Both the position numbers and the translations under genes were made by a program. Positions 265-62,170 of a DNA stretch of 64,000 bases are shown in pieces. The notes beneath the pieces were generated by a model. That model was given only the letters and a program-made list of their open reading frames with translations, searched no databases and had not been told where the DNA came from. How positions within the stretch are numbered: position 1 is the stretch's first letter; each line of letters opens with the position of its first letter. The stretch is from Apostichopus japonicus (Eukaryota; Echinodermata; Holothuroidea; Aspidochirotida; Stichopodidae): the NCBI RefSeq assembly GCF_037975245.1, contig NC_092573.1, forward strand, positions 11,750,001-11,814,000, read 5' to 3'.

Positions 265-17879
<17,615 letters not shown>

Positions 17880-27641: not shown

Positions 27642-30600
27642 TCATATATCTCCGTCAAAGAAAATATGTAAGACAGCATCGACATTTCCATCCGTGGCCT
27701 CAAGTGCTCGAATGCTCGCTGCTTCATCTGTGATTCCCATTTCTCTTAACTGTTGAAGTTGCACCTGTCATGAAAAGAAAAATGAGCTTTCAGATGGAAG
27801 GGCCATCACTACTGCAGCCCCTTGCAAATCCGGTTGCAGACCTTTAACAACTGCTATCTGTCTAAGTTTTACTTCTATAACACTTATTTGAGGAAGTGAA
27901 CTTTTAAACACTGAGGTTAAGTAATTAATGTCACTAAATAGTCTAATAGATAGGCCATTAAGTTGGTTCCTCAGATGCAACATGAAATTAGATGGGAAAA
28001 CACAAAGAATATTATAGCCTCGTGACACATGTATAAGCGTTACAAATTTGTCAAGGAGAAATGACATTGATAATTTATATCCTTGTTGTTTAATATGAAG
28101 TGAAAAGACTGGTTCGGTTGAGTTATCAGAGTTTATGAAACAATGGATTAACTTTAATGCCTGCACTGATGAGCCAATGCCATAATCCATCACTAAGCAT
28201 TTTCAAAGATTTTGCATATTTTAAAGCTTAATATATCTTGGAATGCCTATAGAAACATAATTAGCACTCAAATGTTTCTCCTTTCTTCTTAGACCATAAA
28301 CTATCAAGACTAAAATCCACAAAACTGTTAGCAAACTGCTTATCCACTAAAGTGTGTAAGAGAATGTGTAAAAGTAAGAGGGCATGACGTTTCGATTGTA
28401 GCAGGATCTTCTTCAGATGCTGAATGACAAGTTACGTTAACAGAAGGGACAAATACACACACAGAATACAGACAGGTTAATGAGCAGGGTGAACACAAAA
28501 AGAGAAAGATGTATGAGGATTAGTAGATGGAGAGAAGACAGAAACCAACAGGGGGAGGAGAGGTAGGAGATACACTGTCCTTCTGTTACTGTAACTTGTC
28601 ATTCAGCCTCTGAAGAAGATCCTGCTAGGATCGAAACGTCAGGCCCTCTTACTTTTTACACAAGACTAAAATAAAGTGTCTATATTCATCCATAAAGCCA
28701 TAAACTACAATCTTTCATTCTTACAGTGAAGTCCCTTGGTGTTGAACTGTCATTGCTTCCAGCAGTAGTAAGAGTATTGTTTATTTCTGGCTGAGCTGTT
28801 TGCATCGCTTGAGCTAATGCCTGTTGTAAGATGGAGCTGGTGATGCGACCAGCAGCAGCGGCAGCGTTGGTGGAGGAGGAACTCCCAGATGCAGAGTCGG
28901 AACTGGCAGAGGTCGATGGATCGCTGGGGTTTGTCATCGTGCTTTCAAAAGGTCTCAGAAAACCAGTCTATATAAAAAAAAAAATACAATAATGAAAAAG
29001 TTAACAGTAACAGACAAGATTGGTGCATACAAGCCAATTTGACCATTTAAGACATACTTTTCGAAAAGTAAGGAGTCTATTAAAGGGCAGTGTTGAATGA
29101 AACATTGTGCAGGATATTATATTAGATGCTTTTCCGTACTGATTACCACAGATATCCTTGTATTTTTAAACTAGAGCAGCAATGTCTCCAAAATCTCCAA
29201 AGTTTGTACAGTGAAAGGGATATTTTAGTGGGGGAAATATTAAGCTTAACAGGAATACTCCTTTAAGGACTGATGACATTAGTTGCAGTAGTTATATATG
29301 CAATGTGCTGATCAACTGTTAAGACAAGATACTGCTGATGGGTAAGATCATCACAACTGAGCAAATTATTAATGGTTTTATACCAAATATATGTGTATTG
29401 AATGAGTTACAACGACAGAACAAAAGACTTGTTCAAGCAAAAGGAGAGACCAAAGCTAGCCCTTGGAATTTTTCCCAGTCATCTAAAACTTCCTATGAAG
29501 GACCACAAAATTAGAAAATTTACATACATACTCACATATAACAATGTTCGAAGTTGCCAAGGTCAAGGAATAAACAATTGTTGCAAAGAGTCATCAAAAC
29601 AAGAAAATGGTGCCACTTGAACATATAACGGATGAAGGAATTACAGTTTCCTTCAGATACGTGGGACAAACAAATTCTAAACAGTTAAGCTATGAAACAA
29701 TGCTTACACCATATATCTATCTGAAACTTTCCACTGGGAGAAAACCTTTCACGTACACCTAGAGGAAACTACACTGCTACCATGTTGAAAATCCAGTTAC
29801 TAAACTAGGCAATTAAGAAACTACGCAGCGCTAAGTGCAAGGTATTTATTCCAAAACCCATCGCCACAAAACTGCTTTTTCTTATAAAGAGAAGCCATTA
29901 CAATGACAACTTACAAAGCACACTAGCACTTCGTCCGTTGTATCTCCACCACCATGAGGTTCACTTTTCAGTACATGTATGTATGTATGTATTTTAGATC
30001 CTCCTGCAAAGCAGGTACTCGCATAGAAGCCATCATTGGCAATATCAAAGCTGCAAGCAGACCGTAGTCAGTCTCTTAGATTCATATTTAACGTCCATGA
30101 TTATGAATTGTCAATTGTCAACAACTCTGTAACTAGACGACATACATTAATCTTGGAGTGACTCCAACTCGGGACCTTATGATTGAAAGGCACCGGCGTT
30201 AACCACTGAGCTAACACTCCTAACACTCCAACATACCTGTGGTAAGCTTGCACCTCTTGTCTCTGGACCCCTGCCCACTCCAGCAGCTGTCAGAGCTGCG
30301 GCCAACTGTGCAGCTGTGATGCCACCTTGGGACCTTTGACCGGAAGCAGTTGACGGTCCAGCCTATTTGGGAAGTGAGAAAACAATTTTGCATAGGTAAG
30401 GTGAACCTTTTGGCTCAAGAAAGAATAAAAACAAAAACAGAATAGTAGGCATATGGATCTAACAAAGGAATAAGAAAACTCAACAGAACGTTTCAGGAAA
30501 TTTGAATTACTTCTTGTGAATTATCCAATGTCTACATTCTCTCTATAACATTTGGGAAATAATTTATGCAAAATCACATCGCAAAGTGGTCAAATTGCTC

Positions 30601-60742: not shown

Positions 60743-61165
60743 ATGGCAAAGAATACATTTTCTGAAGTTCTTGTTTCGCGAATGAAAGATTCATCCGCAC
60801 ACGGACTGCCAAACATTGCTCGAGCTAAAACTGTCATCGGTCGCGCCATTTGGACTATCCTTTTCTTGGCTGGATTAGCACTACTCACTTGGCAAGTATG
60901 TGAACGTTGCGCCCGATATTGGTCGAACGAATATGGCGTTAATCTAGACATCAGATTCGACAAAGAGATTTCGTTCCCTGCTGTTACATTTTGTAACATG
61001 AATCCTGTTCGTGCTTCGCAATTTCTCCACCTTTCGGCTGACTTTCAACAACTTTTCGCTGCAAATAGTCCACCATCTGAGGAAACTCGCAACGAGTTTA
61101 TTGCAAATGGAGATGTGACATCTGTTCTTACCGGAACTTCAAATTCGGGTGGGTCTACTACAGAG
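60743..61165 (+). CDS. DEG/ENaC-family sodium channel, first coding exon
   Basis: 141 codons from ATG to a GTAAGG donor (phase 0). Members are trimeric, amiloride-sensitive sodium channels with two membrane helices and a large cysteine-rich extracellular domain. Residues 17-20 (SSAHG) contain the His-Gly gating motif of the family. The first membrane helix spans about residues 33-53 (AIWTILFLAGLALLTWQV). It is followed by the hallmark FPAVTFCNMNPVR at about residues 80-92. The exon ends in a Ser/Thr/Gly-rich stretch early in the extracellular domain. The remaining exons, with the second helix and G-x-S filter, are not in the following 2.8 kb. It could be ASIC-, ENaC- or FMRFamide-gated-like; the N-terminus alone does not decide. 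Confidence 0.86.
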
Positions 61166-62170
61166 GTAAGGGCATGGCTTATTTTTGAAATAGTCATTTT
61201 TCGTCTGTTATCTGCAAGTAGAATTTGCACGATGGAAAGTAAAACTGTGACGTAAAGTAAATATCATTTGATTTAATCTTTACGCCCCCAAATCCTTCAT
61301 GTAGAAGATACATAGACAAATTGTGTCATGTTCTCGTAATGGTGTTAATACGCGTTGAGTATAATATGGTGAATTAGGGTGTGGTACACAGTTAACATTT
61401 AAAACTTCGTTATAGCTGATAGCTGTTTAGACAAGCAAAATGATTCGTGGGGTACAGGGGATGGGGGTGGGGGGGGGATGATCAGAAGCTAGGAGGGGGA
61501 GGACGTATGCCCACTTTTTGTGAGAAATTTCAAAGTGTTTCAATTCATGAAATAAAAGTGCCCTTATTGTTAATAAATGGTAAACTTTTTCTATGCTTGT
61601 AATGAAAAAATTGCCTTAGGTTATTTAAAAAATGTTATTTTGTTCATATATAAGAATGATGTAATTAGAATGTGGCCTTATTTGTTGCAATTTGTTGGGC
61701 TGTAAATTAGATCTATAAGTATGTATATAACACGCAATTTTGTGCTAAATATCTACTTTTTAAATATATATATATTTTTTTGTGGGGATGGGTGTGGGGG
61801 GGGGGAGGGATGAGAAATGTGTACCTCCTTGACATTGATAAAAATACTATATATTATAGTAAGGTAAGTTGAGGAACCCTGAAAGAATTCGAGTTGTAAG
61901 AAGATATCAAGTTTTATTATTGCATTTGTAGTCGTGTTCACTTTTTTTTTTGTCACACGTTTTGACAAAAGCCTGTGTCAATTTTACACTACATTGAATA
62001 CCACTGGATAAAAGAAATAAAGGTTAATGTATAATAACAATAATTCATTGTTTCTAATTATGTGCGAATTATTCACCAGTAGGGATGTAACATGCAAATT
62101 ATGTCCCACACAATGTCTTATATATGTTCTACTTAATTAGCAATCACGATGACTTTTTGTTTGGCCAACA

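What the first reader, a model, noticed from the sequence alone, without database searches (positions are those of the whole stretch)
28604..28645. Hammerhead-ribozyme topology in a short retroelement
All invariant core parts occur in the right order with paired stems: GCCU, CUGAAGA, stem II GAUCC/GGAUC, GAAA, ACGU, GUC and AGGC. The palindromic ACGU that replaces a closed stem III matches what is known for minimal hammerheads of Penelope-like elements, which work as dimers. That a family of only 160-340 bp carries it suggests a small non-autonomous, self-cleaving retroelement. Family links and activity are inferred.
Basis: partly seen in the sequence, partly recalled or inferred. Interest (0 to 1): 0.78.

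Follow-up and report, generated by a model that had tools for sequence, protein, structure and literature searches.

The report
Hammerhead ribozyme in Penelope retrotransposon ends
The spot holds a real hammerhead-ribozyme sequence, but it sits in the end of a known kind of jumping gene (a Penelope-like element) and not in a tiny new self-cutting element; the surprise is that back-to-back copies of this end nearly always carry an extra tail on only one side, which hints at how the element inserts itself.

Summary
The hammerhead topology at 28606-28644 is real: 2 descriptor hits in the window, 0 in 100 dinucleotide shuffles. No Rfam hammerhead model matches, even at E=10.

It is the minimal type I hammerhead of a Penelope-like element (PLE). 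The identical 39-mer lies in the pLTR of a full-length PLE of the same genome: tandem units of about 3.25 kb, 953-aa frame, RVT_1 E=6.9e-9, GIY-YIG E=3.3e-4 (just under Pfam's cut-off).

The 160-340 bp "short retroelement" is not a self-propagating family. Short copies are separate PLE insertions: 77 of 80 inner sequences are distinct, the repeats lie in duplicated loci. In this copy the hammerhead is predicted to be buried in a long hairpin.

Unexpected: PLE ends fall at two sites, A (untailed) and B (tailed). Of 80 inverted-arm insertions, 77 have a tail on exactly one end (about 40 expected), and in 69 of these the other end is at A. This fits one cDNA started at A and one at B on opposite target strands, as in vitro work on an Anolis PLE suggests (PMC11167929). 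A tail on one inverted pLTR was already described (PMC3846280).

Ribozyme activity is not shown.

The parts
28305..28316 (.). left target-site duplication, CAAGACTAAAAT
   Evidence: direct repeat
28317..28364 (-). tail (stretch between RT start sites A and B) of the left arm
   Evidence: tail score 72 against 15 on the right end; letters
28365..28447 (-). left arm in PLE sense on the minus strand, beginning at site A
   Evidence: 92% complementary to the right arm; outer limit
28382..28420 (-). degraded hammerhead of the left arm (GCAT/ATGC stem I, 2 of 5 stem II pairs lost)
28448..28578 (-). rest of the longer cDNA: pLTR sequence upstream of the hammerhead, shared with other genome copies
   Evidence: copies match query 15-274
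28579..28662 (+). right arm, ends at site A without tail; the last 2 bases overlap the right duplication
28606..28644 (+). intact minimal hammerhead; predicted cut after C28640
28661..28672 (.). right target-site duplication
8232..8421 (.). second inverted PLE insertion (element 1) with 14-bp duplications; intact-topology hammerhead at 8354-8392 (+), tail on the left only
9765..9929 (.). third inverted PLE insertion (element 2), candidate 11-bp duplications set about 20 nt of A/T-rich DNA away from the tail; join lies inside the hammerhead (9863-9901), tail on the left only

Best explanation
The motif is the pLTR hammerhead of an endonuclease-bearing Penelope-like retrotransposon, and 28305-28672 is one dead-on-arrival insertion of it. 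Proposed mechanism: the PLE protein cuts both strands of the target and extends both 3' ends on PLE RNA. One cDNA starts at RNA site B (end of the tail, about 80 nt past the hammerhead cut), the other at site A (about 21 nt past the cut). Each stops at its own point, the two are joined, and gap filling leaves a target-site duplication. The product is an inverted repeat with outward-facing hammerheads and one tail. The hammerhead probably serves processing of tandem PLE transcripts, as a dimer or with protein help, and is a passenger in the short copies. Shown here: the family link, two discrete ends, the one-tail rule, the duplications, the independent junctions. Inferred: strand-by-strand priming, the order of steps, RNA cleavage.
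For: PLE link: decayed GIY-YIG frame upstream of the pLTR in L003 and L008 (read by eye); tandem units of about 3.25 kb; L174 with 953-aa frame, RVT_1 6.9e-9, GIY-YIG 3.3e-4, hammerhead at 656-694 and frame opening at 734. Ends: 45 untailed and 35 tailed of 80 sampled copies, A and B 59 nt apart. One-tail rule: 77 of 80 inverted copies (45 left, 32 right), 73 of 76 after dropping 4 duplicated loci (p about 2e-18 against one half); in 69 of the 77 the other end is at A; 12 of 14 in the sample; 8 of 8 informative of 9 long arrays; 3 of 3 in the window. One event per pair: flank repeats of 8 nt or more in 44 of 80 against 5.3% of shuffled pairings. In vitro precedent: both strands cut and extended, two internal RT start sites, tail between them (PMC11167929, parts 1-3 of 4 read).
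Against: Exceptions: L097 has tail score at threshold on one end and a tail on the other; L137 (same locus as L019) and L094 (scores 20 and 12) have none; L048 is ambiguous. In 8 of 77 the untailed end stops short of A. The array C10 shows tail letters on both sides, though its left side runs on into more element sequence. Many one-armed copies have a duplication right at the start of the arm, so a second cDNA is not always made. Direct strand priming is not seen in genome data. GIY-YIG is slightly under Pfam's cut-off. No Rfam hammerhead match. Covariation among copies is inconclusive.
Confidence: 0.75

Rival explanations
1. A short non-autonomous self-cleaving retroelement (retrozyme-like family of 160-340 bp) that spreads as a unit.
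For: Many short copies exist: 259 inverted core pairs with a gap of 1-61 nt against 51 and 42 in the next two windows of the same width; hammerhead present; duplications present.
Against: 77 of 80 inner sequences are distinct, the 3 repeats lie in duplicated loci; the same ends occur on copies that run on into PLE coding sequence; units are inverted, not head-to-tail.
Confidence: 0.06
2. Inverted arms arise by snap-back or self-priming: one cDNA (or an antisense RNA) folds back and is copied, as proposed for bdelloid Penelope elements (PMC3846280, passages).
For: Some junctions are near-perfect palindromes (e.g. C4:10175323, C4:13478979; C15:10090684); arms agree at two diagnostic sites more often than expected (62 and 60 of 76; permutation means 35.5 and 36.2).
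Against: Copying one arm from the other should give the same tail status on both ends (my inference), yet 77 of 80 differ; arms stop at points at least 28 nt apart in 13 of the 14 copies (counted by hand from that listing).
Confidence: 0.13
3. A MITE-like DNA transposon or a chance motif, without relation to a ribozyme.
For: Inverted terminal arms and duplications look MITE-like; no Rfam hammerhead hit.
Against: 0 descriptor hits in 100 shuffles; unequal ends and unique joins; the sequence is the pLTR of a frame with RT and GIY-YIG; core letters CCTCTGANGA and GAAACGTCAGG are shared with the Anolis PLE hammerhead printed in PMC11167929 (compared by eye).
Confidence: 0.03

Closest known systems
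Minimal type I hammerheads of Penelope-like elements (Cervera and de la Pena 2014, Lunse et al. 2017: neither held here; seen through passages of PMC7761336 and PMC6155905)
   Same: Core, short stems I and II, no closed stem III, palindromic ACGU, position in the pLTR.
   Different: Stem II sequence and one extra A before it (the Anolis element also has an extra base there, read by eye); no activity data here.
Poseidon element of Anolis carolinensis, PAc (PMC11167929, parts 1-3 of 4 read)
   Same: Hammerhead letters CCTCTGANGA...GAAACGTCAGG; tail between two RT start sites; AT-rich targets by eye.
   Different: There the hammerhead overlaps the start codon and start sites lie about 111-118 bp into the frame; here the hammerhead ends 39 nt before the long frame opens. 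The Anolis paper maps start sites one end at a time; here both ends of single insertions are compared.
Penelope elements of the rotifer Adineta vaga (PMC3846280, passages)
   Same: Inverted pLTRs, short duplications, a tail optionally on one of the inverted pLTRs.
   Different: No count of tails per insertion seen in the passages; the term hammerhead does not occur in its text.
Metazoan non-LTR retrozymes (PMC7229834, passages)
   Same: Short hammerhead-bearing repeats in animals, type I architecture.
   Different: Those are tandem repeats, mostly with canonical hammerheads, seen as circular RNA; here the short copies are inverted, minimal and formed one by one.

Membership tests
Endonuclease-bearing Penelope-like element | One frame with reverse transcriptase and GIY-YIG endonuclease | tested here: met
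   L174, 953 aa: RVT_1 6.9e-9 over cut-off; GIY-YIG 3.3e-4, 21.3 bits against a cut-off of 22.6
Endonuclease-bearing Penelope-like element | Tandem or inverted units with pLTRs, 5' truncation, short duplications, optional tail | tested here: met
Endonuclease-bearing Penelope-like element | RT in the PLE branch of a phylogeny | not tested
   no tree was built
Minimal PLE hammerhead | CUGANGA and GAAA core, paired stems I and II, no closed stem III | tested here: met
Minimal PLE hammerhead | Match to an Rfam hammerhead model | tested here: not met
   this is a test of those models, which are not the definition of the minimal variants
Minimal PLE hammerhead | Compensatory changes among copies | tested here: inconclusive
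   of 237 sequences 3 double changes at one stem I pair against 0.47 expected (the window's left arm is one of the sequences), 1 at another (0.10 expected), none at the other stem pairs
Minimal PLE hammerhead | Self-cleavage as a dimer or with protein | not testable with these tools
   needs an in vitro assay
Metazoan retrozyme | Short unit that spreads as such, usually head-to-tail | tested here: not met
   77 of 80 inner sequences distinct; units inverted
Metazoan retrozyme | Abundant circular RNA | not testable with these tools
   no transcriptome data here

The most novel reading that the evidence does not exclude
Each complete PLE integration complex starts two cDNAs, one at RNA site A and one at site B, on opposite strands of the target. 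Inverted-repeat insertions with one tail would then be the standard product of a built-in asymmetric machine, one-armed copies would be cases where one cDNA failed, and the 'optional' tail of PLEs would mark which half of the complex made that end.
Probability: 0.5. Interest if true: 0.66.

Novelty: new member of a known kind. Interest (0 to 1): 0.5.

Why it matters
Hammerheads in PLE ends are known, so the motif adds a family and not a kind. What could matter is the near-fixed pairing of the two end types within single insertions. How PLEs finish integration is open (PMC11167929 speaks of steps yet to be validated). A rule of one A start and one B start per insertion would turn the old tail oddity into a readable trace of two-strand priming and gives a sharp bench prediction. 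A variant with U in place of C3, found in 23 of 80 sampled copies, also suggests that an unaltered core is not needed for spread, in line with the Anolis result that hammerhead mutants still insert in vitro.

Tried and rejected
Rfam cmscan: no hammerhead family. Loose pattern: 6 hits elsewhere, none at this site. Conservation among copies as proof of selection on the ribozyme: rejected, because loop II is as conserved (0.967) as stems (0.966 and 0.968 at non-CpG sites) and the anchors bias the sample. Covariation: inconclusive. Hammerhead-cut RNA as the RT template: 11 copies begin at the cut site against 5 at a control point 3 nt upstream, beside 2,547 exact 20-mers of the stretch past the cut; the pattern passes only some junctions (about 42% by chance, my estimate), and 4 of the 11 lie on contig 3 with the same letters, 3 of them close together, so some may be duplicates. 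Cut RNA seems at most a minor template. Hidden short opposite arms in one-armed copies (48 copies examined, of which L067 and L085 already counted as inverted; 20 of the 66 one-armed copies were left out because the arm was long or ran past the fetched stretch, or as duplicates): matches of 12 nt or more in L059, L067 and L085, each of the opposite end type; L080 (7 nt) and L066 (8 nt) are too weak to count. Other PLE hammerheads with a different stem II: 65 matches, by eye nearly all variants of this family. L013, a second PLE-like frame of 910 aa, has no hammerhead by a strict expression. The host species was not determined.

Limits. The anchors need ATTCA before the hammerhead, whereas L174 and the arrays have ATTTA; core counts and the C3U share describe the ATTCA copies only. 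I fetched 80 of the 100 listed of 263 places, the first 40 listed of about 259, 20 of 51 and 20 of 42. The 9 arrays were picked by me from the inverted pairs visible; several others visible there were not fetched. The reverse-transcription model rests on end structure, not on observed reactions. Inverted pieces of L033, L072 and L082 are not among the 14, which required adjacency. Part of the listing was cut from view; counts come. One search printed its rows and then stopped on a file-writing error.

Full report
Observation. A topology scan finds two such sites in the window (CTGA at +8358 and +28610) and none in 100 dinucleotide shuffles. Rfam gives no hammerhead match, even permissively.

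Anatomy. The hammerhead lies in the right arm of an inverted repeat (28370-28447 and 28579-28656, 92% complementary). The left arm carries a degraded hammerhead on the minus strand and a 48-nt tail (28317-28364) that the right arm lacks. A 12-bp direct repeat brackets the whole (28305, 28661). Two more inverted copies lie at 8232-8421 and 9765-9929, with candidate duplications of 14 and 11 bp and the tail on one end only. In the predicted RNA fold of the plus strand, 36 of 39 hammerhead bases pair with the opposite arm, so this copy is unlikely to cleave itself in cis.

The family. The genome has 671.6 Mb in 35 contigs. A DNA search scored 40 of 3,810 candidates; one anchored pattern gives 263 copies, and one 20-mer past the cut site occurs 2,547 times. 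L003 and L008 continue upstream into a decayed GIY-YIG-like frame (by eye; Pfam gave no GIY-YIG match to those fragments). A search with that fragment scored 150 of 1,717 candidates, several in head-to-tail units about 3.25 kb apart. One unit, L174, has a 953-aa open frame with RVT_1 (6.9e-9) and GIY-YIG (3.3e-4, slightly under cut-off); the identical 39-nt hammerhead ends 39 nt before that frame opens. This is the pLTR hammerhead of a Penelope-like element, a known kind (passages of PMC7761336 and PMC6155905).

Are the short copies a family of their own? Among 80 inverted copies the sequence between the two cores is distinct in 77. The three repeats lie in duplicated loci, and a fourth pair, L102/L106, also shares its flanks. 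So nearly every short copy is a separate event.

The ends. In 80 copies sampled by an anchor pattern the 3' ends fall at A, about 21 nt past the predicted cut (45), or at B, 59 nt further (35). In 80 inverted copies chosen without regard to tails, a tail is on exactly one end in 77 (45 left, 32 right); L097 scores on both (24 and 85), L137 and L094 on neither (shuffled maximum 21, threshold 24). In 69 of the 77 the other end lies at A; in 8 it stops short. Without four duplicated loci the count is 73 of 76, where about half is expected (p about 2e-18). The sample gives 12 of 14, one with two untailed ends (L019, the locus of L137) and one ambiguous (L048). Nine long inverted arrays give 8 of 8 informative; in the ninth (C10) both sides show tail letters, but the left side runs on into more element sequence. 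The three window copies follow the rule. Flank repeats of 8 nt or more occur in 44 of 80 against 5.3% of shuffled pairings, so the two arms belong to one insertion.

Mechanism. [quoted passage not shown] the stretch between them is the tail (PMC11167929, parts 1-3 of 4). The pattern here is what one expects if, within one insertion, one target strand primes at A and the other at B, the cDNAs stop at different points and are joined. Arms stop at points at least 28 nt apart in 13 of 14 (counted by hand). Arms agree at two diagnostic sites more than expected (62 and 60 of 76; permutation means 35.5 and 36.2, maxima 48 and 46 in 2,000), so templates are of one lineage. Whether one or two RNA molecules serve is open: within lineages arms differ little less within an insertion than between insertions (0.066 against 0.071, and 0.096 against 0.119). 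Self-priming, proposed for bdelloid elements (PMC3846280, passages), should give equal tail status and fits less well, though some junctions are near-perfect palindromes. That paper already says the tail is optionally on one of the inverted pLTRs; what is added here is the count and its link to two-strand priming. In the searches of the held library I saw no such count, but I read passages and parts only, and Craig 2021, Cervera 2014 and Lunse 2017 were not held.

The hammerhead's part. Of 80 sampled copies 27 keep the full core. 23 have T at C3, all with AA after GGCC; those 23 have diverged as little (0.106) as the 19 copies with C3 and AA (0.105). So a source with U3 spread. That U3 weakens the ribozyme is from recall; U3 and G8 can still wobble. 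The exact intact 39-mer is in 18 of 18 end stretches of the long arrays and in L174, so full-length copies seen here keep it. Few copies begin at the cut site (11 against 5 at a control, beside 2,547), so cut RNA does not look like the main template. This agrees with the Anolis finding that hammerhead mutants do not change insertion. Covariation among copies is inconclusive.

Verdict. The hammerhead is a new member of a known kind. The one-tail rule is the part worth following.

Noticed in passing
window 8582-8658 (-): A tRNA match (39.8 bits) about 160 bp from element 1; a tRNA gene or the head of a SINE.
   Followed up: no
window about 28720-28967 (-): A putative exon (by eye, MTNPSDPST...; no Pfam hit) whose splice donor lies roughly 60 bp from the insertion, so the PLE copy probably sits in an intron with its tailed arm in gene sense.
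   Followed up: partly
G000: Inverted core pairs are far more common at gaps of 1-61 nt (259) than at 62-122 (51) or 123-183 (42): cDNAs seem to stop often just upstream of the hammerhead. Unexplained.
   Followed up: no
L013 (G000:C13:25219001-25228500): Another PLE-like family with 910-aa and 686-aa frames (GIY-YIG hits), also in opposite orientations, without a hammerhead by a strict expression.
   Followed up: partly
G000: Hammerhead variants of the same family with the first stem II base changed (TATCC, AATCC) or 3 nt deleted (CTGAAGATCC) occur at several places.
   Followed up: no
window 60743-61255 (+): A 170-aa open frame that by eye resembles the N-terminus of an acid-sensing/ENaC-type sodium channel; name from recall, not tested.
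   Followed up: no
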